From the NCBI GenBank assembly GCA_947586655.1, contig CANPXR010000003.1, positions 1-34,976 on the forward strand: a stretch of DNA of 34,976 bases, written 5' to 3'. Shown here piece after piece: positions 8,280-20,106 of the stretch (position 1 is the first letter of the stretch; the number at the start of each line of letters is the position of its first letter). Source of the stretch: an uncultured Bacilli bacterium. GTDB taxonomy: Bacteria; Bacillota_I; Bacilli_A; RF39; UBA660. The position numbers and the translations under genes are program-made. Under the pieces are notes generated by a model. It saw only the letters and a list, made by a program, of their open reading frames with translations, did not search any database and was not told the origin of the DNA.

Positions 8280-8483
8280 TTATTTACATTTACCTTCGCC
8301 TGGGTTAGCTCCTTTAACATAAGTTTCTCCAACAAGCTCACAAGATGTCTTTGTAATCGAGTCTTTTAGATACCCTCCAAAAACCTTTATTAAGCTTACC
8401 GCAATAACCGTAACTAGCGCGATAATTAAAACGTATTCAACCAAGGCTTGCCCTTTATTTTGCATCTTTTTCATATGTTTCAC
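8280..8483 (-). CDS. Flp/Fap-type small pilin
   Basis: MKKMQNKGQALVEYVLIIALVTVIAVSLIKVFGG; class III-like prepilin G|QALVEY motif. Confidence 0.85.
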   Translation of the reverse strand: MKHMKKMQNKGQALVEYVLIIALVTVIAVSLIKVFGGYLKDSITKTSCELVGETYVKGANPGEGKCK

Positions 8484-8617
8484 ACCCTTATTTTATACTA
8501 ATATTAGTTTAACATTTTATATCTTATTTTGTCAATGTAAAAACTCGGTATATATACAATTTAAAGATATAATTTGTATTATTAACTTATATATGATAAT
8601 ATTTAACTGGTGATAAT

Positions 8618-8890
8618 ATGTTAGTTTTTAGTAATATAAAAGTTAAAGAAGCTAAAACATTTAAAGAGCGACTTTTTGGATTAATGTTTAAAAAGAATAT
8701 TAACTACGGTCTTTTATTTAAGAACTGCAGATCCATACATACCTTTTTCATGAAAGAAAAAATAGAAATTATAGCAACCGATGCTAATGATAAAATAATT
8801 AAGAAATATAAAAGCGTACGGCCATGGAGAATAATAATAGCTCCTAAAAATACTAAAAATATATATGAGCTACCAGAAAATACGATATAA
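8618..8890 (+). CDS. DUF192-family protein (copy 1)
   Basis: KVKEAKTFKERLFGLMFKKNINYGLLFKNCRSIHTFFMKEKIEIIATDAN fits the DUF192 pattern; identical to 19227-19499. Confidence 0.8.
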   Translation: MLVFSNIKVKEAKTFKERLFGLMFKKNINYGLLFKNCRSIHTFFMKEKIEIIATDANDKIIKKYKSVRPWRIIIAPKNTKNIYELPENTI

Positions 8891-8905
8891 CCAATCGTAT
8901 TTTTT
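8877..8905 (+). terminator. Intrinsic terminator after DUF192 gene copy 1
   Basis: AAAATACGAT-ataacca-ATCGTATTTTTT. Confidence 0.75.
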
Positions 8906-8927
8906 AAATATCACTTTGCTTAACGAA

Positions 8928-9092
8928 ATGAAACAAAAGAAATGTTGTTGCACAAAGTATATTTTGGGGCCAACTGGACCAACCTGTCGATTGTATAAAT
9001 CTTCTAATAAAATTATTCATAATTTCAAGCAACTTCCAATTAAGTCCACACAAAAACAAGTCATAGACCTGTTTTGTTTTTTTAGACTTTAA
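8928..9092 (+). pseudogene. Truncated copy of the collagen-like Cys-rich gene
   Basis: MKQKKCCCTKYILGPTGPT then unrelated residues and early stop; full-length homologue at 19537-20106. Confidence 0.75.
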
Positions 9093-9134
9093 ACAAAGTA
9101 AAATTTGCATAAAGTTAAAAGGATTGTTTTTATT

Positions 9135-10061
9135 TTAATAAACTTTAGTTATTTTTCCATTAGCAATAATTCTTCCGCCTTCTCTAATAGAAAACTCTGT
9201 CCCGACATCAAGAGCTATGGATTCTGCCAAAGTTACAGTAGCTGAAACATTTTCTCCTGGATTTACCATTTCTTTTCCTTTTGGTAAATTAATTGTTCCT
9301 GTTATGTCTGTTTTAAAATAAAATTCAGGACTGAAACCATCAAAAAATGGAGTGCTCCTACCACCATCTTCTGTGGAAACAACTAATAAATCTGCATCAA
9401 ATTTTTTAATAGCGGCAATAGAATTTGGTTTAGCAACTACTTGTCCTACTTGTACTTTGCCTTCTTCTACTCCCTTTAATAATAATCCAACATTATCTCC
9501 TATTTTTGCATAATTTGAATTTGATTTAAATGCTTCAACTGCAGCAACAGTAGTAGTAATTATTTCTTTATCTAATCCGATTACTTGGACTTCATCATTT
9601 ATTTTTATAGTACCTCTATCTATTGTACCAGTAACAACAGTTCCTCGTTCAGATACCGTTGACACACTTTCAATTCTTAATAAGAAAGCACCATTTTCAT
9701 CATAGTTTGTATTAGTATTTTTATCAACTGTTCCTGATGTATTTAAATTATTGTTCTCTGTTGAAGAATTTTCATCATTATTTGTATTATTGTTTGTATT
9801 ATTTTGATTATAAATTAAAACAATTCCGACAACAACTACTATTATAGCAATAGCAATTATTATTAATAATTTAACATTAAAGTTTTTCTTTGGTTGCTGT
9901 GGCTCAGTAGGTTGTTGATATGTATTCACAGTTGATGTTGATTGCATTGGTTGAGAATACATATTAGTTGTGGCTTGATTTTGTATTGGTTGTTGTTGAG
10001 ATTGTTGATTTATTGGTTGACCTGTCGTTGTGTCGAATTTATAATTGTTATTCTGATCCAT
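9135..10061 (-). CDS. Membrane-anchored GTPase-less EF-Tu-like protein (EF-Tu domains II and III after Q/P-rich tail and one TM)
   Basis: FLLRIESVSTVSERGTVVTGTIDRGTIKINDEVQVIG..KIGDNVGLLLKG..GQVVAKPNSI (domain II) and EDGGRSTPFFDGFSPEFYFKTDITGTINLPKGKEMVNPGENVSATVTLAESIALDVGTEFSIREGGRIIANGKITKV (domain III); no P-loop, DxxG or NKxD; TM KLLIIIAIAIIVVVVGIVLIY. Confidence 0.9.
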   Translation of the reverse strand: MDQNNNYKFDTTTGQPINQQSQQQPIQNQATTNMYSQPMQSTSTVNTYQQPTEPQQPKKNFNVKLLIIIAIAIIVVVVGIVLIYNQNNTNNNTNNDENSSTENNNLNTSGTVDKNTNTNYDENGAFLLRIESVSTVSERGTVVTGTIDRGTIKINDEVQVIGLDKEIITTTVAAVEAFKSNSNYAKIGDNVGLLLKGVEEGKVQVGQVVAKPNSIAAIKKFDADLLVVSTEDGGRSTPFFDGFSPEFYFKTDITGTINLPKGKEMVNPGENVSATVTLAESIALDVGTEFSIREGGRIIANGKITKVY

Positions 10062-10085: not shown

Positions 10086-10742
10086 TTATTTGGAAGTTAA
10101 ATCAACACTTATAACTCTTATTCCCTTAGTTGATCTGATTAATTCATCAAGTGAATTAGATATATGATCTTCTAATTCAAGATTTGGCATAAATTCAGTA
10201 TTTTTTGTGTCTAAATATTCGATTATAATATCATTTAAATTTTCTTCTAAAATATCCTTTAAAGAATTATTAAATAAATCTTTTGCAGTAAATCCGCCGA
10301 ACAAATTATTTGTTGTATCTGTATTTAAAACATTTGCAGTTTCAAAGAATTTAACTGGATCTGCAATAGATAAATGTAATGAAATTTCATAATTATTATC
10401 TTTGTTTTTATAATTAATAGAACTTTCAACATTTACATGAAATTCTGAAAGTGACATTTTATAAAACTTATAATTAGAATTTGTAACAGTATAATCTTTT
10501 TCTAAATTAACATAGTCAACTATTTCTTCATTATCAACTGCTATTAAAACAAAAGGGCTACTATTACTTGCTTTTATTACTCCGTTATCTGAGGTAGTTT
10601 CACTAACTATATTCCAGCTGTTATCTTCTATATATGTAATTGAATTTGAACCTTTTGAAGTATTATTACTTTTACTATCACATCCACTAGTAAAACCTAA
10701 TATTAAAAAGCTACACATTAAACCTATTAAAATTTTTTTCAT
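10086..10742 (-). CDS. Putative lipoprotein with SPFH/Band-7-like domain
   Basis: MKKILIGLMCSFLILGFTSGC lipoprotein-type signal; YEISLHLSIADPVKFFETAN...LKDILEENLNDIIIEYL...STKGIRVISVDL resembles SPFH domain pattern. Confidence 0.6.
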   Translation of the reverse strand: MKKILIGLMCSFLILGFTSGCDSKSNNTSKGSNSITYIEDNSWNIVSETTSDNGVIKASNSSPFVLIAVDNEEIVDYVNLEKDYTVTNSNYKFYKMSLSEFHVNVESSINYKNKDNNYEISLHLSIADPVKFFETANVLNTDTTNNLFGGFTAKDLFNNSLKDILEENLNDIIIEYLDTKNTEFMPNLELEDHISNSLDELIRSTKGIRVISVDLTSK

Positions 10743-10850: not shown

Positions 10851-13313
10851 TTATTGTACTTTTGCATTATCAATAATACTTTGTGGTATTTCCACATCAC
10901 CAGCATTATCATAATTAGAATACTTGATTGTTGTTGTAAATTTTTCAAATCCTTTAATCATATTTGTAAAATCATATTCGAGTCTAGTTATATATCCATT
11001 ATCTGTATATACTTCAACATAAATATCGCCACTTATAGCAGATGTGTTTGTATTACCTGAAGACATTAGACCTTTAACATCATTTTTAGTCATTTTTACT
11101 TTATATTGATTATCTGCTATTTTAGTAACATTTTTCATACTAATTAATTTATCTAAAATAACACCTAAATCTACAATTTGTGATGCAGATTTTTCTTTCC
11201 ACCAAACATCACCACCATAAGGTTGTGTCATATAACTATAACCTGTATTAAAATCGTGATATATTTTATTGTTTACAGATACAAATCCCATTGAAGTAGT
11301 TGTAATATCTAGATATTCTTTTTGGTGTAATTCGTCCATAACTCCGGTTGATACAGTATTAGTTTCAACACCAGCAATAGTAAGATCCATTTCTATTTCT
11401 ATATTATAATTATTAAATGTCGTTACAAATTCTGAATTTTCAGCAAAATCACTACCTTTTACTTTAATTGTGTATGAATTTGAATTTGTAATATCAGCAT
11501 TATAAACAGCAACATAAAATTTATCATATCTAACATAATATGTTAAATCTTCTTCAATTTTATCCATACTTGATGATAATTCAGTATAAACACCATCTTT
11601 ATAACCATAAAATTTCAAACCGACATAATCTTTGTTTCCACTAATAACTTCTATGGTATTATCACCTGATACTTCATAATAATCTACTGCACCAGCATTT
11701 ATTGTTTGATTTAAAATTTTTGATGTATTAATTGTATCTTTTAAATTAACATTTTTATCAGTATATAATGATTTATTATCATATTTTTTTGCTAAAGTAT
11801 TATAAGTAATTGTTTCACTTACTTTAACTAAATCTTCTCGTGATGTATTATTTTTTATGTAATCAGTTGGATTACTTTCATTAAGTGCTGATGTTAAAAT
11901 AGAAACCCAATCATTAACTACTTTTGTATATGTATAATAATAAGGAAATTGTCCATATCCATCTGCCAAATCAGACAATTTACCACTTAACTCTTGGGTA
12001 TATCTACCAGCCCATCCATTTAAAAAATTATTTGTTGAAGTAACTTCACTAACTAAAACACTAGCTAAATTTGCAGTTGCCTCTGTATAATATCCATTAG
12101 GACATCTATGTTGTTCAGTTCCCTCACAATATAAATATTGAAAATGATGGAATAATTCATGATTTGCAACTGTCTTTATATTTTCTGTTGATTGTTGAAT
12201 TGTTCCTTTATCTATTACAATATATGGATAAGAAACTATTCCACTTTCACCCATAAATAAATCATCAATGCCTAAAAGAATAATTGTCTCAATTAAAACA
12301 CCTGTATCAATAGGATTATAATATGTAGCTAGAGTTCCATTACTGCCTGTATCATAAATATAAACATTCATAGCTGTATCAATTTTAGCAGCATTTATTC
12401 CATTTACTTTAAGCGATTCGCGAGCATTAAAATAATTTTTATTTATTAATTCATCATAATATGGTTTATACAAATATTCTGTATTAAATATTTTTTCATA
12501 ATCACCAATCGAGTTTTCTAACTCATTAGCAATATCTTGTACCTGTTCTAAAGTAACTTTATCCGTTCCATAATCAGTATACCAAATTATAAATCTCTCA
12601 TTTTTAGATAAGTATGCTTTATTCAATTTATGACTTGCAATTTTATCTTTATTATTAGTATCGTTTAATGGAACTACTCTAACATTATTATTAATATTTG
12701 CTTGAGAGTCTATACTAACTTCGTTTCCAACTCTAACATCTTGTAGTGTTGCTTTTTCAATTAGTTTTTTTATTGATTCTTCTGACAATTCAGATCTATG
12801 ATTTTCCAATAATTCAATAATTTCTGAAATATTACCAGTTGTATAAATAATTTCATCTGTTTTATATTTATTATCTAAACTATCATAATCATAATCATAA
12901 TTAACTAGTTCTGTAAAATATTTATTGACATCTATTTTTCCACTTTCATAATCAGTTTTTAATTTTTTTAATGTACTTTCAGTAATTTCTTCTTCCTTTA
13001 TATTTGGAATTTGTTCATTATTTGATTTATTATTATCTTTTTTATTAAAGATAAAGAATAAACTTACTCCAACAATAACAACAACTAAAACGCCAAGAAT
13101 TATTAATAAATCTCTTTTACTTTTATTTGGTTTTTTAGAACTATTGTTGTTATTTTGAACGGAATTATTAAAACTATTTACTGGTATTGTATTTACAACT
13201 GGTTTTACTGATTGTTGTTCTATCATTTTTCTTAGTTCTTTTATATTAGTTCCACAATTAGGACAAAAATCTACATTATCGTCCACTTGGTTTCTACAGT
13301 TTGGACAATACAA
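10851..13313 (-). CDS. Zinc-ribbon, single-TM protein with large exported region containing a putative HEXXH zinc metallopeptidase
   Basis: CPNCRNQVDDNVDFCPNCG zinc ribbon; TM LLIILGVLVVVIVGVSLFFIF; VANHELFHHFQYLYC plus downstream YYTEATANLAS. Confidence 0.75.
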   Translation of the reverse strand: MYCPNCRNQVDDNVDFCPNCGTNIKELRKMIEQQSVKPVVNTIPVNSFNNSVQNNNNSSKKPNKSKRDLLIILGVLVVVIVGVSLFFIFNKKDNNKSNNEQIPNIKEEEITESTLKKLKTDYESGKIDVNKYFTELVNYDYDYDSLDNKYKTDEIIYTTGNISEIIELLENHRSELSEESIKKLIEKATLQDVRVGNEVSIDSQANINNNVRVVPLNDTNNKDKIASHKLNKAYLSKNERFIIWYTDYGTDKVTLEQVQDIANELENSIGDYEKIFNTEYLYKPYYDELINKNYFNARESLKVNGINAAKIDTAMNVYIYDTGSNGTLATYYNPIDTGVLIETIILLGIDDLFMGESGIVSYPYIVIDKGTIQQSTENIKTVANHELFHHFQYLYCEGTEQHRCPNGYYTEATANLASVLVSEVTSTNNFLNGWAGRYTQELSGKLSDLADGYGQFPYYYTYTKVVNDWVSILTSALNESNPTDYIKNNTSREDLVKVSETITYNTLAKKYDNKSLYTDKNVNLKDTINTSKILNQTINAGAVDYYEVSGDNTIEVISGNKDYVGLKFYGYKDGVYTELSSSMDKIEEDLTYYVRYDKFYVAVYNADITNSNSYTIKVKGSDFAENSEFVTTFNNYNIEIEMDLTIAGVETNTVSTGVMDELHQKEYLDITTTSMGFVSVNNKIYHDFNTGYSYMTQPYGGDVWWKEKSASQIVDLGVILDKLISMKNVTKIADNQYKVKMTKNDVKGLMSSGNTNTSAISGDIYVEVYTDNGYITRLEYDFTNMIKGFEKFTTTIKYSNYDNAGDVEIPQSIIDNAKVQ

Positions 13314-13370: not shown

Positions 13371-15116
13371 TTATCCTTCATAAAATAACTTGCCAGTAGT
13401 ATAAGAATAATATTGTGTTTTTGAATTCACTGATGTAGTAAAATAATTTGGATATGTATTTGGTTTTGAATCAACAGTAACAATATCTTTTTCTTTTTTC
13501 AAATCGCGAATTGTATATTTTCCATCATTTTCTATGATAGCATAAATAACATTATTAGATAATTGTGTTTGTATATTTTGACCGGTAACAAGTTTTTTGC
13601 CATTGATTTTAAATATTGTTGTAGTTCCATCTTCATTTGTTCCATAATATAAATCTTCAGTTCCATTAACATTATAAATTTTTTCAGCACTGCTATTATT
13701 ACTATAATAATCTGATACTTTTTCACCTTTTAAGTTAATTACATAAAAGTTTTTAGCATCTTCGCTAACTGACGCATACCCATTTTCATCAAATTCATAC
13801 GCTCTTTCATAAGATTTATCATTAATTCTTGTACCGTCATAGTTCAAATATATTTTATTACCTTTACCATATCCACTACAATGATCTAGAAGATATACCC
13901 CGTGTCTTGCATAGCCACCTTGTATGTTATCACAATTTAACTTTTCTTTTAAAGCTCCATTAACATAAAGTTCAGCACCATTTAATATTCCATCAGCTTG
14001 TTTTACATAATTATTATAATCTTTATAAATTATATATGAATTGGCTTTAGTCTTTTCATTTCCATTTTCATCTAATAAATATGTATCTCCTGATTGATAT
14101 ACAACAGTACTTCCATTAAACTTCATAGATCCATATTCACTTTCTTTGGAATAAGCAACTTTGCCATTTCTTACTACTTTAGATCCTTCTTTATCATAAG
14201 AAGATTCACAAGTGTTCAAAATAAATTCATCTGGATTTTCATCATTTATATCTGATATACAGAAAATTCTTGAATCTGGGATAGTTAAAAGAAGTTTTCC
14301 TTTTGAAATATCAATTATATAATTTATATTATTATAAAATATAGAAACATAATTTTTTTTACTATTTCCCTTTGGACTACTAATATCAGAATCATCTTTT
14401 GAAACGGCAAATGATGTTATTTCCTTTCCGTTATAATCGATTACTTTATATTCAGTATCTGATTCTATTAAGGCATAAGTATATTCACCAATATATGATC
14501 TTATATCTTCATCTTTTTCTAATTGTCTTATAAATTTTCCAGAACTATCATATAAATACTTATTATATTCTTTATCTGTCATTTCATATACTGCATATTG
14601 TTGTGAAATATAGTCATACTTACCAAATTCAATTATCATTTTACCAGATGAAGAAATAAGCCCATACTCATTATTTTTGTTTTCAACATTTGCTGTACCA
14701 TTAATGAATTCTGAATTTACACTTGTATAATCGAATCCTGTAAGTTGTTTCCCATCAATATCAAACATCGCATATAAATTTTCACTATTTCTTACCCAAA
14801 AAGAAGTAGAATCAGTAAGTGATTTTGACACATTATCTTTTTCATTATTACCAAATAATTTAGGAATAAAAATAATTCCAACGATAACTATTATTATAGC
14901 GATAACAATTATTATCAATAATTTTGGATTTATTTTTTTCTTTGGTTGCTGTGACTCAGTAGGTTGTTGATATGTATTCACAGTTGATGTTGGTTGCATT
15001 GGTTGAGAATACATATTAGTTGTAGTTTGATTTTGTACTGGTTGCTGTTGTGGTTGTTGATTTATTGGTTGACCTGTCATTGGATCATACTGCACATTAT
15101 TAAAATTATTATTCAT
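13371..15116 (-). CDS. TM-anchored WG-repeat-like protein with Q/P-rich N-terminal tail
   Basis: N-terminus YDPMTGQPINQQPQQQPVQNQ..., TM KLLIIIVIAIIIVIVGIIFI, degenerate repeats such as NEYGLISSSGKMIIEFGKYDYIS, NKIYLNYDGTRI. Confidence 0.7.
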   Translation of the reverse strand: MNNNFNNVQYDPMTGQPINQQPQQQPVQNQTTTNMYSQPMQPTSTVNTYQQPTESQQPKKKINPKLLIIIVIAIIIVIVGIIFIPKLFGNNEKDNVSKSLTDSTSFWVRNSENLYAMFDIDGKQLTGFDYTSVNSEFINGTANVENKNNEYGLISSSGKMIIEFGKYDYISQQYAVYEMTDKEYNKYLYDSSGKFIRQLEKDEDIRSYIGEYTYALIESDTEYKVIDYNGKEITSFAVSKDDSDISSPKGNSKKNYVSIFYNNINYIIDISKGKLLLTIPDSRIFCISDINDENPDEFILNTCESSYDKEGSKVVRNGKVAYSKESEYGSMKFNGSTVVYQSGDTYLLDENGNEKTKANSYIIYKDYNNYVKQADGILNGAELYVNGALKEKLNCDNIQGGYARHGVYLLDHCSGYGKGNKIYLNYDGTRINDKSYERAYEFDENGYASVSEDAKNFYVINLKGEKVSDYYSNNSSAEKIYNVNGTEDLYYGTNEDGTTTIFKINGKKLVTGQNIQTQLSNNVIYAIIENDGKYTIRDLKKEKDIVTVDSKPNTYPNYFTTSVNSKTQYYSYTTGKLFYEG

Positions 15117-15124
15117 TTTGACTC

Positions 15125-16063
15125 CTATTTAAACATATTTAAATAATCACTAATTTGATTAGTAATACCACTTGTTAAAACTTTCATATATACATAATAT
15201 CCAGCTGTACTTAAAATAGTCATACAAACTAAATGGAAATATGCACACATATCTTTTTTATCAAATTTAATATTATCATTTATCAACAACACAAATATAA
15301 TTATAGAATAAATTGCACCAATTATAGTAGCAACTATTGATAATGGTGCCCATATTTTTCCTAAAAGTGGAGATACAATCATTCCCATAATTACATAAGG
15401 AATTATTGAACTCGCACTTATTGATAATGTCTTTATGAAATTAGTAGATTTTTTTACTACTAAAGACGCAAGATAATAGACAACAGTAATTGCTAATATT
15501 ATGCACACATATATCAATAAATTTTTACCAATTAAACTTAAATAATCTAAATCTTTTAATCTAGCAAAATCAATTTTTGTTTTATAATCAAAAGTTGAAT
15601 AATCCATTGTTTTAACAAATATCACAGAAATCATAGATGTTAAAAGTTGAATAATCATCATTGCCCCAGCAACAATTCCACTTAATATCATACCATTTTT
15701 AACATTTACTAATTTTCCTTCTTCTTTCTTATAAGTTTCAAAAGGTTTTATTATAAATGAAATAATATACTTAATAAAATTAAATGTTTTACCATCAACA
15801 AAAGTTGTATTTTGTTGAGATGGATTCACAGTTGGTGTTGGTTGAACATTGTTTATTGGTTGTTGCATTTGTGGTTGTGCTGGTTGAACATTGTTTATTG
15901 GTTGTTGCATTTGTGGTTGTGCTTGTTGTTGATAGTTTTGTTGTGGATTAATATTTTGGTTTAATTCATTCTGATTTAAATTATCAGCATTTAAAGCATT
16001 TCCACATTTAATACAAAATTTTGATTGTGGGTTATTATATGTACCACAGTTTGTACAATTCAT
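15125..16063 (-). CDS. Zinc-ribbon plus Yip1-like multi-TM protein
   Basis: CTNCGTYNNPQSKFCIKCG; Q/P repeats; five or more hydrophobic helices; 'IIKPFETYKKEEGK' Yip1-like entry. Confidence 0.7.
   Translation of the reverse strand: MNCTNCGTYNNPQSKFCIKCGNALNADNLNQNELNQNINPQQNYQQQAQPQMQQPINNVQPAQPQMQQPINNVQPTPTVNPSQQNTTFVDGKTFNFIKYIISFIIKPFETYKKEEGKLVNVKNGMILSGIVAGAMMIIQLLTSMISVIFVKTMDYSTFDYKTKIDFARLKDLDYLSLIGKNLLIYVCIILAITVVYYLASLVVKKSTNFIKTLSISASSIIPYVIMGMIVSPLLGKIWAPLSIVATIIGAIYSIIIFVLLINDNIKFDKKDMCAYFHLVCMTILSTAGYYVYMKVLTSGITNQISDYLNMFK
15840..15923. repeat. Two tandem 42-bp units encoding QPQMQQPINNVQPA
   Basis: ggttgaacattgtttattggttgttgcatttgtggttgtgct repeated twice. Confidence 0.9.
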
Positions 16064-17574
16064 TATTCTCCTCCTTTTTGATTTGTAACATCTCTTACTA
16101 AACTAGCAACTGAGTTTTGATCAACTAATGAGTTTAATAATTGATTACCTAATCCTTGACCACTAATTGAAGTATTATTTGCTCCATTTATTTTTGAATT
16201 AGTCAATCCTGTTTCAGTTTTAATAAAATTATCAATTTTTCTTAAATTAGTTATATTTGTTTTGGTTTCAGTTTCATATTTATGTCTAGCATTTGAATTA
16301 CGATAACGAGCAAACATTACAAAGAAATAAATAAATCCTGCTAGTAAAAATGCCCAATTATAATCAAAATTTATAAATAGCATAGCTAGAACACCTAAAA
16401 TTTCTACTAAGAAGGAAATTCCTAATAATTTCGGAATATGAATAGGTACACTACCCATTGTTTCTTTAGTTCTTGCATTCACTGCAACATAATGTAATAC
16501 TTTATTTTCACCACTTACTTGTAAATAGCTATATAGCCATACAGGTAAATAAGCTGCCTTCCATTGTTGTCCTTTAACATCTAGTTGTTCATTGCTCCAG
16601 GCAACCCCTCGATCATAATTCTTTAAAGTATCATTAGCTGCAAATTTTGCTATATCTTTAGATTGTTTATCTACCAAAGGTCTTAATTGATCAATGTTTG
16701 TATCACGCTTTTCTGAAGTATAACCCTTCAAATAATTAGCATTAAATTTAACACAATTTTCTAAGTCGAATGGCATTATAGCATTGATAACATTATTTGT
16801 TGCACTTGATGAAGAATTATTTAATTTGTCTGCACTAGATTCAACCGTTAATCCCTGTATAACTAAGTCAAATTCTCTTTCTACATGATAAAGATCTGCA
16901 TCATAATAAGTTTTTCTGTTTTCTCCACTACCAAGATAATATGTTCTCGTTAAATGCTCTCCATTACCAACAAGATTAACATGGGCATTTGCATCAACTA
17001 ACATATAAGGCAAATACACGCCCATAATGTTTTCAGTAGTAAATTCTTGTCTAAATTTAGGATGAGCAAAAAATTTTCTTTTGCCTACAAACTTTTCGAT
17101 TTCAGTTTTAGCCACATCTTTAGATATACTAAATGGTAATACAACATCTGGTATACTTCCATTTGGAATTTGTTGATTTACTGATAGTGTATTTCTACAC
17201 CAGTGACATCTTGCTTGAGTAGAAGAAGCTGTATCAACTACTACCTCAGCACCACAACTACTACATTTAAAAGTTACAATATCTTTCGTATCTGCTACAA
17301 TATCTTGTGCTCCAGATCCAATAACTTGACCTTGTAATTGGTTAATATCAGTTGCCATACCAACAACTTTTTGAGGTTCAAATTCGTGTCTACAAAAATT
17401 ACATCTTAATTTTCCACTATTTGTGTTAATAGCAATATCTGTTGAGCCACATTTAGGACATTTGTCTTGTCCGTCTTTTGCACCTACATCAGTTTGAATA
17501 ATTGTAGGTCCATTAGTAACATTATTACTATTGTTTATAGGTTGAGTTATATTTGAATTATTACTATCTTGCAT
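16063..17574 (-). CDS. TFIIB-type double zinc-ribbon membrane protein (YdjG-like)
   Basis: CPKCGSTDIAINTNSGKLRCNFC and CSSCGAEVVVDTASSTQARCHWC; VLPFSISKDVAKTEIEKFV; WKAAYLPVWLYSY; two TMs; adjacent to SPFH gene. Confidence 0.8.
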   Translation of the reverse strand: MQDSNNSNITQPINNSNNVTNGPTIIQTDVGAKDGQDKCPKCGSTDIAINTNSGKLRCNFCRHEFEPQKVVGMATDINQLQGQVIGSGAQDIVADTKDIVTFKCSSCGAEVVVDTASSTQARCHWCRNTLSVNQQIPNGSIPDVVLPFSISKDVAKTEIEKFVGKRKFFAHPKFRQEFTTENIMGVYLPYMLVDANAHVNLVGNGEHLTRTYYLGSGENRKTYYDADLYHVEREFDLVIQGLTVESSADKLNNSSSSATNNVINAIMPFDLENCVKFNANYLKGYTSEKRDTNIDQLRPLVDKQSKDIAKFAANDTLKNYDRGVAWSNEQLDVKGQQWKAAYLPVWLYSYLQVSGENKVLHYVAVNARTKETMGSVPIHIPKLLGISFLVEILGVLAMLFINFDYNWAFLLAGFIYFFVMFARYRNSNARHKYETETKTNITNLRKIDNFIKTETGLTNSKINGANNTSISGQGLGNQLLNSLVDQNSVASLVRDVTNQKGGE

Positions 17575-17576
17575 AA

Positions 17577-18794
17577 TTATATACCCAATAATTGTGCCTT
17601 TATTTTATCATAATCTTCTTGAGTGATTAATCCAGCATCTAATAATTTTTTCTTTTCAGTTAATACTGTCATTGGGTCTTGTCCAGCTGGTTGATTAGGT
17701 TGTGATTGGTTTACTTCTTGTGCTGGTTGTTGTCCAAAAGCAGGTTGATAACTTGATTGAGTATTAGGTTGTTGCATACCTCCCATCATACCACCAGCGG
17801 CATTCATTCCCATTCCCATAAATGCCATACCAGAGCCTCCACCATTTTCACCAGCAGCTTGCATTCCTCTTGCAACAGATTGTTGCATAAACGAATTTCC
17901 TCTTGCTCCTGATAAAGCATCTGCCTTTTTAACATCCTTCATTAATTCCTTAGTATCTTCATCATATTCAATAGATAAAATTGCTGTTTTTACAATTTCT
18001 AATCCACGATTAGTTTTCCATTGATAAGCATCTTCAACTGCTTGGGCCATAGCTTGGGCAAAACCGATTTGATCTCCTTGAATTTTAGACATACGATTAC
18101 CTTTGCTTGGATCGTTTGTATAATTTGAAAATGCTGCTGATAGAGTACCAACTACTTCATTAAATAATTGATTACCGGCATCATTATCCATATCTGCAAA
18201 ATCAAATATTGGTGCATTTGGTTGCAAATATTTTGCAGGCACAAAATTTTTAACAAATAGTAATGGATCAACGATTTTTAATGTATATGTACCTCTTGTT
18301 ATTGCTCCAACTTGTGTACCAAAAAATGCATCATCCCAATAAATTTCAGATTGAGTTCCAAATTTATTGTTAGGTATTTCTTTTAAATTAACATAAAATG
18401 CTAATTGTTGGCTTCCTGGTTGTCCACCAAATTTAACTTTTTCCCAAGTTGATTTAATTGTTTGTCCAAATATTCCATCACCGGCAAACATTGATTGTGA
18501 ATTAGGGTCATCAGATTTAAATTCATATCCTCCTGGTTCTGCAATAATACCTGTAATTTGTCCATCTTGCAATGTAATAAGTGCAGTCCCTTCTGGAACG
18601 ACCATCTTACTCCCGTTAGAAATGATATTTTCATTTCCTTTCCAATTTTCCCCACGGCCATTGTTTTGTGATTGTGGAACTGCTTGAAATACAGCAGCAG
18701 TGCCTGGAACATCAGCTCTAGGAACATAAAAATCTTTCCATTGATCAGCAAAAGTACCACCTAATGCTCCAGAAAATGCTTTAATAAATCCCAT
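17577..18794 (-). CDS. SPFH/Band-7 domain protein with C-terminal SHOCT-like segment (YdjI-like, often annotated 'virion core protein')
   Basis: QSEIYWDDAFFGTQVGAITRGTYTLKIVDPLLFVKNF; C-terminal LTEKKKLLDAGLITQEDYDKIKAQLLGI. Confidence 0.88.
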   Translation of the reverse strand: MGFIKAFSGALGGTFADQWKDFYVPRADVPGTAAVFQAVPQSQNNGRGENWKGNENIISNGSKMVVPEGTALITLQDGQITGIIAEPGGYEFKSDDPNSQSMFAGDGIFGQTIKSTWEKVKFGGQPGSQQLAFYVNLKEIPNNKFGTQSEIYWDDAFFGTQVGAITRGTYTLKIVDPLLFVKNFVPAKYLQPNAPIFDFADMDNDAGNQLFNEVVGTLSAAFSNYTNDPSKGNRMSKIQGDQIGFAQAMAQAVEDAYQWKTNRGLEIVKTAILSIEYDEDTKELMKDVKKADALSGARGNSFMQQSVARGMQAAGENGGGSGMAFMGMGMNAAGGMMGGMQQPNTQSSYQPAFGQQPAQEVNQSQPNQPAGQDPMTVLTEKKKLLDAGLITQEDYDKIKAQLLGI

Positions 18795-18830: not shown

Positions 18831-19226
18831 TTGTAATTTTAAAAATTTAATAAAGACTTTGAATAGTTTAAGGGTTAGCAAATTTAGGTATCTTGAAATT
18901 AATTTATTATAAATGTTATAATTTTACTTTTTACCGTAATTACCTGTAAGATTTCTTGTAAAAATCAACAGTAAAGTTGAGGTGCTAACACGAAGTGAAA
19001 TTCAACATCATCTTGCTATTCTTATCTAGAAATAATACAATAACCATTTTAAAATACAATAATTTCTATAACTACTACCACTAAACACTCCTATTCTTAA
19101 TAAGTATAACATATTATTTCATCTTTGACCATAATTTTATAACATGTAAAAACTCGGTATATATACAATTTAAAGATATAATTTGTATTATTAACTTATA
19201 TATGATAATATTTAACTGGTGATAAT

Positions 19227-19499
19227 ATGTTAGTTTTTAGTAATATAAAAGTTAAAGAAGCTAAAACATTTAAAGAGCGACTTTTTGGATTAATGTTTAA
19301 AAAGAATATTAACTACGGTCTTTTATTTAAGAACTGCAGATCCATACATACCTTTTTCATGAAAGAAAAAATAGAAATTATAGCAACCGATGCTAATGAT
19401 AAAATAATTAAGAAATATAAAAGCGTACGGCCATGGAGAATAATAATAGCTCCTAAAAATACTAAAAATATATATGAGCTACCAGAAAATACGATATAA
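19227..19499 (+). CDS. DUF192-family protein (copy 2)
   Basis: Identical 90-aa product to 8618-8890. Confidence 0.8.
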   Translation: MLVFSNIKVKEAKTFKERLFGLMFKKNINYGLLFKNCRSIHTFFMKEKIEIIATDANDKIIKKYKSVRPWRIIIAPKNTKNIYELPENTI

Positions 19500-19514
19500 C
19501 CAATCGTATTTTTT
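19486..19514 (+). terminator. Intrinsic terminator after DUF192 gene copy 2
   Basis: AAAATACGAT-ataacca-ATCGTATTTTTT. Confidence 0.75.
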
Positions 19515-19536
19515 AAATATCACTTTGCTTAACGAA

Positions 19537-20106
19537 ATGAAACAAAAGAAATGTTGTTGCACAAAGTATATTTTGGCTCCAACTGGGCCTACCGGACCCG
19601 CGCCTTTAACTACTTCCTGCTTTTGTGTTGATCAAATGAGAAACGTGATACAACAAATAATATCATTATATCCAAACGATAACTTAATAGTTGCAATGGA
19701 AAGTGGTAATAACGCCAGCGGAAGGCCAGGATCATTATTACCAGGCCCAAATAATAATCCTAATTCTGGATTATTTCAACTTGTTAATAATCAAGGAGTT
19801 CCTCAAGAAGCACTATCAATATGTAGAATAGCTTCAATAACAGTTACAAGTAGTACGTATAATGATACAATTACTTACTTACCTGCTCCAGTTTTAACAC
19901 CAACTGGATGTGATGCAAATTGCGAGGCTGCTGCAAGATCATACCTCCCGGTTGGTACAACAAACGTTGATATAAATGCAGGTGGTCAAACGGTAGCGCA
20001 AGGAACCATATTAAAAAGCGAATATGGTATGGTTGTTGTCGTCGGTAATAATAATAGCAACCCATCATTTGTATCCTTATGCAAAGCCGAAATAATTAAC
20101 AAGTAA
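19537..20106 (+). CDS. Cys-rich protein with short collagen-like GPTGP motif (possible spore-surface protein)
   Basis: MKQKKCCCTKYILAPTGPTGPAPLTTSCFC...; ORF track start at 19474 lies inside the DUF192 gene and terminator, so ATG 19537 preferred. Confidence 0.65.
   Translation: MKQKKCCCTKYILAPTGPTGPAPLTTSCFCVDQMRNVIQQIISLYPNDNLIVAMESGNNASGRPGSLLPGPNNNPNSGLFQLVNNQGVPQEALSICRIASITVTSSTYNDTITYLPAPVLTPTGCDANCEAAARSYLPVGTTNVDINAGGQTVAQGTILKSEYGMVVVVGNNNSNPSFVSLCKAEIINK

What the first reader, a model, noticed from the sequence alone, without database searches (positions are those of the whole stretch)
9135..10061. GTPase-less EF-Tu domains II+III fused to a transmembrane anchor, probably outside the membrane
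Seen: residues after the TM follow EF-Tu domains II and III closely (RGTVVTG, GDNVGLLLKG, GQVVAKP, GGRSTPFF, FYFKTDITGTINLPKG, IREGGR) with no G-domain motifs. The segment before the TM is basic (QPKKNFNVK) and the linker after it is Asn-rich and uncharged to acidic, so the positive-inside rule predicts N-in/C-out. Established: EF-Tu domain II/III folds bind aa-tRNA, and EF-Tu is repeatedly reported as a moonlighting surface protein. Inference: a dedicated membrane-tethered EF-Tu C-terminal module, perhaps an adhesin, decoy or scaffold part, not a translation factor.
Basis: partly seen in the sequence, partly recalled or inferred. Interest (0 to 1): 0.87.

Follow-up and report, generated by a model that had tools for sequence, protein, structure and literature searches.

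The report
Membrane-anchored EF-Tu domains without GTPase
Some uncultured gut bacteria carry an extra gene in which the two barrel domains of the translation factor EF-Tu, without its GTPase part, are fused to a membrane anchor and probably displayed outside the membrane, a patchily distributed gene family that I found no description of.

Summary
The minus-strand gene at 9135-10061 encodes QP-rich tail, one TM helix, Asn-rich linker and EF-Tu domains II+III (Pfam D2 2.6e-12, D3 9.9e-24; predicted fold matches EF-Tu D2-D3 chain 5i4q_C, TM-score 0.86). There is no G domain. The genome has a normal EF-Tu elsewhere and no separate G-domain gene. It is a real but rare family: seven genomes found (5 of 379 sampled in the host's family), one origin on the tree (100/100), purifying selection (dN/dS about 0.1 between two relatives), strong ribosome sites. 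Heads vary: zinc ribbon in four, QP-rich in three. One relative has a neighbouring second gene: the same anchor type fused to EF-Tu G domain + domain III, so both kinds of EF-Tu piece are membrane-tethered there. The window gene ends a YdjI/YdjG (SPFH, zinc-ribbon) envelope operon whose gene order that relative largely shares. C-out topology is likely, not proven. Five relatives keep 17-18 of 18 tRNA-surface residues; the window copy lost 8 and is the most diverged. Best guess: an accessory extracytoplasmic binding module; a decoy for EF-Tu-directed toxins or drugs, or a tethered split EF-Tu, remain possible.

The parts
9135..10061 (-). TM-anchored EF-Tu II+III gene (308 aa, P0001)
   Evidence: AGGAGG ribosome site upstream
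9876..10061 (-). QP-rich N-terminal tail with FDTTTGQPIN motif and basic PKKNFN, residues 1-62
   Evidence: related tail in the WG protein 13371-15116 and in L066/L067 relatives
9810..9875 (-). single TM helix, residues 63-84
9687..9809 (-). Asn-rich linker, residues 85-125, ending in GTVDKNTNTNYDENGA, which aligns with the end of EF-Tu domain I and its linker (DAVDxWIxTPxRDxxKP)
   Evidence: alignments
9435..9686 (-). EF-Tu domain II (residues 126 to about 209)
9138..9422 (-). EF-Tu domain III (residues 214-308)
10086..10742 (-). lipoprotein-like gene immediately upstream (24 bp gap), same direction
   Evidence: no Pfam or NCBIfam match
10851..13313 (-). zinc ribbon-TM-large C-terminal region, weak match to an HExxH metalloprotease model
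   Evidence: NF045524, 9.3e-4, below cut-off
13371..15116 (-). QP-rich-TM-WG-repeat protein; its head and TM are 88% identical in DNA to those of the EF-Tu-barrel gene (9808-10030 vs 14860-15082)
15125..16063 (-). zinc ribbon + Yip1 membrane protein
   Evidence: 3.7e-8
16063..17574 (-). TFIIB-type zinc-ribbon membrane protein, YdjG-like
   Evidence: homologs in G331 and G712; YdjG assignment is inference
17577..18794 (-). SPFH/Band_7 protein with SHOCT tail, YdjI-like
   Evidence: Band_7_1 1.2e-8
8535..8967 (.). left copy of a 433-bp identical direct repeat (DUF192 gene plus 5' end of a collagen-like gene) bounding the segment
19144..19576 (.). right copy of the same 433-bp repeat

Best explanation
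[quoted passage not shown] The family has one origin, is under purifying selection and is scattered over genera of one family of gut Bacilli. Inferred: the protein sits N-in/C-out, its zinc-ribbon or QP-rich head in the cytosol (perhaps associating with the YdjI/YdjG-type SPFH stress complex encoded beside it in two genomes), and its D2-D3 barrels face outward as a protein- or ligand-binding module. It would be a hard-wired version of the surface EF-Tu that other bacteria display without any export signal. It is not a translation factor.
For: Architecture and fold. Seven genomes with it: 5 of 379 sampled genomes of the family, in 5 genera; absent from the other 17 genomes of the genus; only the window's own genome in 397 class-level and 279 phylum-level genomes. 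The six members in the tree form one group against EF-Tus with 100/100 support. dN/dS 0.10 between P0002 and P0007, like EF-Tu itself (0.13); P0001 about 0.3 against relatives. AGGAGG-type ribosome sites at the genes. Hosts have their own EF-Tu. C-out: N-terminal zinc ribbons in four members; L067 operon protein with zinc ribbon-TM-TSP3-VWA; positive-inside bias in P0001, P0005, P0006. Operon order ydjI-ydjG-Yip1-WG ... TM-EF-Tu shared by window and L067 genome. D2-D3 alone binds proteins: 5i4q_C co-crystal with CdiA/CdiI (PMC9086364). Surface EF-Tu binding fibronectin is established elsewhere, with domain III involved (PMC5593925, PMC6822514).
Against: Topology is not measured; K/R counts are balanced or reversed around the TM in P0002, P0007, P0008. 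No ligand is known. If it were only an adhesin barrel, retention of 17-18 of 18 tRNA-face residues in five members would need another reason. Mobility-associated contexts in some genomes (recombinase, defence genes) suggest other roles.
Confidence: 0.42

Rival explanations
1. Decoy: an extracytoplasmic (or membrane-proximal) D2-D3 trap for agents that act on EF-Tu, such as interbacterial toxins that dock on EF-Tu D2/D3 or elfamycin-type antibiotics that bind near the tRNA pocket.
For: Five of seven members keep 17-18 of 18 tRNA-face sites while other deeply invariant sites changed (1 of 18 vs 32 of 89 changed in any of the five, p=0.011). CdiA-CT NC101 and its CdiI bind EF-Tu D2 and D2-D3 (PMC9086364; 5i4q_C is a top-20 fold hit). 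Accessory gene near defence genes in some hosts: CBASS cyclase-E2-S_4TM beside it in L065, PDC-S02 nuclease and a resolvase in G187.
Against: The five-member test excludes P0001 and P0008 after the fact; with P0008 included p=0.29. The window copy lost 8 of 18 sites. Known elfamycin sites involve clefts with domain I (PMC10653918), absent here. The defence neighbours may only reflect an integration hotspot.
Confidence: 0.2
2. Membrane-tethered split EF-Tu: D2-D3 and a G-domain partner reassemble on the same side of the membrane and handle aa-tRNA or another RNA.
For: In L067/L068 the gene just upstream (8425-9660) encodes the same anchor type + EF-Tu G domain (Pfam 6.3e-47) + domain III (2.2e-24), no D2; head regions 79% identical to the partner. 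GTP motifs nearly intact: GHVDHGKS, DMPGH, SKCD, GSALK. Partner D2-D3 (P0006) keeps 17 of 18 tRNA-face sites.
Against: The partner was found in only one genome of those searched; G4 Asn is Ser and its domain III lost the FYFRTTD and REGG motifs; C-out topology would leave it without GTP; GTP-motif retention is not significant (p=0.11).
Confidence: 0.13
3. Non-functional chimera made by recombination between low-complexity QP-rich heads and an EF-Tu copy, decaying in the window genome.
For: The anchor is a near copy of the neighbouring WG gene's (88% DNA over 223 nt); P0001 has a long branch and lost 8 of 18 tRNA-face and 37 of 89 other deeply invariant sites.
Against: Open frame with a strong ribosome site, core fold kept, dN/dS about 0.3 for P0001 and 0.1 between relatives, found in seven genomes.
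Confidence: 0.1
4. Cytosolic-facing (N-out) tethered module that holds aa-tRNA or EF-Ts at the membrane.
For: tRNA face kept in five members.
Against: Basic side and zinc ribbons precede the TM; anchor type shared with VWA/TSP3 and WG proteins; the window copy lost the face.
Confidence: 0.08

Closest known systems
Elongation factor Tu (TIGR00485, Pfam PF03144 + PF03143)
   Same: D2 and D3 by sequence (50-72% identity to host-family EF-Tus over D2-D3) and predicted fold
   Different: no G domain; fused to a TM anchor; class-specific changes at T. aquaticus positions 254, 262, 264, 308, 310, 312, 313; scores far below the TIGR00485 cut-off (206 vs 522 bits)
Moonlighting surface EF-Tu (Mycoplasma, Staphylococcus; PMC5593925, PMC6822514)
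   Same: EF-Tu barrels outside the cell would be the shared idea; domain III takes part in fibronectin binding there
   Different: that EF-Tu is the single housekeeping protein, exported without a signal and sometimes cleaved; here a separate gene carries its own anchor and no G domain
Zinc ribbon-TM proteins of the TcaA type (NF053815)
   Same: four members have the same kind of head: zinc ribbon, disordered stretch, TM (P0002 matches TcaA positions 4-70, 2.3e-6)
   Different: C-terminal part is EF-Tu D2-D3; score far below the family cut-off; the window copy has no zinc ribbon
B. subtilis pspA-ydjGHI operon (PMC8581546)
   Same: SPFH YdjI-like and zinc-ribbon YdjG-like genes head the window operon
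   Different: no PspA seen beside it; Yip1, WG, lipoprotein and EF-Tu-barrel genes instead

Membership tests
Elongation factor Tu | GTP_EFTU G domain with GxxxxGK, DxPGH, NKxD | tested here: not met
   no PF00009 match in P0001; no separate G-domain gene in G000
Elongation factor Tu | domains II and III | tested here: met
Elongation factor Tu | aa-tRNA contact residues on D2/D3 | tested here: not met
   P0001 keeps 10 of 18; five relatives keep 17-18 of 18 (contact list recalled from the ternary-complex structures)
Moonlighting surface EF-Tu | exposure on the outer face of the membrane | not testable with these tools
   only indirect: TM, flanking charges, zinc-ribbon heads, VWA/TSP3 neighbour
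Moonlighting surface EF-Tu | same gene product serves translation | tested here: not met
   separate tuf gene at G000:C1:2-1186
TcaA-type zinc ribbon-TM proteins | N-terminal zinc ribbon followed by one TM | tested here: not met
   window copy has a QP-rich head instead; met in P0002, P0007, P0009, P0010
Split, reassembling EF-Tu | complementary G-domain protein with matching anchor in the same genome | tested here: not met
   absent in G000; met only in L067/G712

The most novel reading that the evidence does not exclude
Gut Bacilli have moved EF-Tu to the membrane in pieces: a TM-anchored D2-D3 protein and, in one lineage, a TM-anchored G-D3 protein from the same operon that could reassemble into a membrane-tethered EF-Tu working outside translation, possibly outside the membrane.
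Probability: 0.13. Interest if true: 0.88.

Novelty: new variant of a known kind. Interest (0 to 1): 0.63.

Why it matters
Surface EF-Tu has long been debated because it has no export signal. Here bacteria appear to have built a dedicated, anchored version of just the barrel domains, with its own gene and under its own selection. That lets one ask directly what EF-Tu barrels do outside the cytosol, by deleting or expressing a gene that is not needed for translation. The one genome with a second anchored piece (G domain + D3) makes reassembly testable.

Tried and rejected
Carriage by phages or plasmids: only ordinary EF-Tu found, none in viral contigs. Complementing G-domain gene in the window genome: none. 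Fragment of a frameshifted full EF-Tu: rejected, complete ORF with TM and ribosome site, seven genomes. Single-sequence AlphaFold2 of the TM-G-D3 protein gave no usable model (mean pLDDT 43), so its fold rests on Pfam alone. Reading the near-identical copy in L064 (98.55% over 4.2 kb to L063 while host EF-Tus differ by dS 0.70) as clear gene transfer: held back, since a 4.3-kb contig could be mis-binned. Literature searches for membrane-anchored or split EF-Tu paralogs gave nothing relevant. Known phage-defence assignment: P0001 matches only low-complexity/TM stretches of unrelated models.

Full report
The gene. The finding is correct in sequence, but the gene lies on the minus strand. It encodes 308 aa: a QP-rich tail, one TM helix (63-84), an Asn-rich linker, and EF-Tu domains II and III. 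PDB matches are all EF-Tu-type factors, most starting at residue 120-125. The AlphaFold2 model, built from six relatives, has disordered tail and linker, a TM helix and the beta-rich D2-D3 part at block-mean pLDDT about 61-88; Foldseek returns EF-Tu for all listed hits, with TMt 0.86 to 5i4q_C, the EF-Tu D2+D3 fragment crystallised with CdiA/CdiI. An AGGAGG site precedes the start.

The genome. The window is contig C3 of a 990-kb assembly. Its ordinary EF-Tu is on contig C1 and is 51-52% identical to the new protein over D2-D3. A search with a G-domain query found only EF-Tu and other, longer GTPase ORFs in this genome, so no partner G gene.

The family. Relatives were found by profile and pattern searches: G187 with two identical copies, L064, L065, L066, L067/L068, and G725. 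In the host's family 5 of 379 sampled genomes carry it, in 5 genera; no other genome of the genus does, and beyond the family none was seen in the samples taken. These searches favour close relatives, so more distant forms may exist. Public titles of the carriers read Bacilli, Bacillales, Tenericutes and (probably mislabelled) Actinomycetes; the samples named in them are pig, goat caecum and 'Lapin'. On a tree of D2-D3 the six TM forms included are on one side of a fully supported branch from EF-Tus. P0001 is on a long branch. dN/dS is 0.10 between P0002 and P0007 and about 0.3 for P0001 against the others. All share a linker of the type GTVDxNTNxxYDxxGAFL, which aligns with the end of EF-Tu domain I (DAVDxWIxTPxRDxxKPFL), so the cut was probably made once, near the end of domain I (inference).

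Heads are swapped. Four members have an N-terminal zinc ribbon, three a QP-rich head with a GQPI motif. In the window the head and TM are 88% identical in DNA to those of the WG-repeat gene 5 kb away; in L066 the head shares 92% over 73 nt with the window's Yip1 gene.

A second anchored piece. In L067/L068 the gene directly upstream encodes the same anchor type joined to an EF-Tu G domain and domain III, without domain II. Its head is 79% identical to its neighbour's. GHVDHGKS, DMPGH and GSALK are present; NKCD is SKCD. Its domain III has lost typical motifs. It is absent from the other carriers searched and from 388 further family genomes. L067 and L068 are near-identical contigs of one assembly.

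Surroundings. The window gene is the last of seven minus-strand genes: YdjI-like SPFH, YdjG-like zinc ribbon, Yip1, WG, zinc ribbon with a weak HExxH match, lipoprotein, TM-EF-Tu. L067's genome has the same YdjI, YdjG, Yip1, WG start and the TM-EF-Tu gene further along. In B. subtilis YdjI, YdjG and YdjH anchor PspA to the membrane under envelope stress (PMC8581546). The segment is bounded by a 433-bp identical direct repeat, so it was probably inserted or rearranged recently; a genus-mate has only the first two genes, in another setting. Elsewhere the gene lies by a CBASS operon (L065), a PDC-S02 nuclease and resolvase (G187), or a seryl-tRNA synthetase-like gene (G725; assignment by eye).

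Topology. Positive-inside bias is clear for P0001, P0005 and P0006 and weak or balanced for the rest. Zinc ribbons with free cysteines argue for a cytosolic N-terminus (inference). A zinc ribbon-TM-TSP3-VWA protein in the L067 operon is an expected outward-facing relative of this anchor type. I put C-out at about 0.75.

Function. Against 107 deeply invariant D2-D3 sites, five members changed 1 of 18 tRNA-contact sites and 32 of 89 others (p=0.011), but leaving out P0001 and P0008 was decided after seeing them; with P0008 the contrast fades (p=0.29) and the window copy shows none (8 of 18 lost). The contact list is recalled from the ternary-complex structures, not re-derived. So the tRNA/antibiotic/toxin face may matter in most members and has been let go in this one. 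Surface EF-Tu is a known binding protein in other bacteria (PMC5593925, PMC6822514), and D2-D3 alone can hold protein partners (PMC9086364). An outward-facing binding module is the simplest reading; a decoy and a tethered split EF-Tu are live rivals.

Limits. All carriers are draft or metagenome-assembled genomes; no expression data; the literature library is open-access only, so an earlier description elsewhere cannot be excluded.

Noticed in passing
window 8535-8967 and 19144-19576: 433-bp identical direct repeat 10.6 kb apart carrying a DUF192 gene and the 5' end of a collagen-like gene; the left collagen copy is truncated. Possible insertion footprint or assembly effect.
   Followed up: partly
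window 9808-10030 and 14860-15082: Head plus TM segment shared at 88% DNA identity between the EF-Tu-barrel gene and the WG-repeat gene: anchor swapping inside the operon.
   Followed up: yes
L067 8425-9660: TM-anchored EF-Tu G domain + domain III without domain II, next to the TM-D2-D3 gene.
   Followed up: partly
L065 2055-4666: CBASS operon (cyclase, E2, S_4TM effector) directly downstream of the TM-EF-Tu gene.
   Followed up: partly
L063 7532-11729 vs L064 54-4252: 4.2 kb 98.55% identical between two genomes whose EF-Tus differ by dS 0.70: recent transfer or mis-binning.
   Followed up: partly
L067 4938-7799: Zinc ribbon-TM-TSP3-VWA protein in the same operon; supports outward display by this anchor class.
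   Followed up: no
EF-Tus of the host family, T. aquaticus position 387: Ser in all 43 family EF-Tus checked, where T. aquaticus has Ala (E. coli A375 by offset, a kirromycin-resistance site as recalled).
   Followed up: no
L063 6831-7385: Aminoacyl-tRNA editing domain gene (Pfam tRNA_edit) between the two TM-EF-Tu copies of G187.
   Followed up: no
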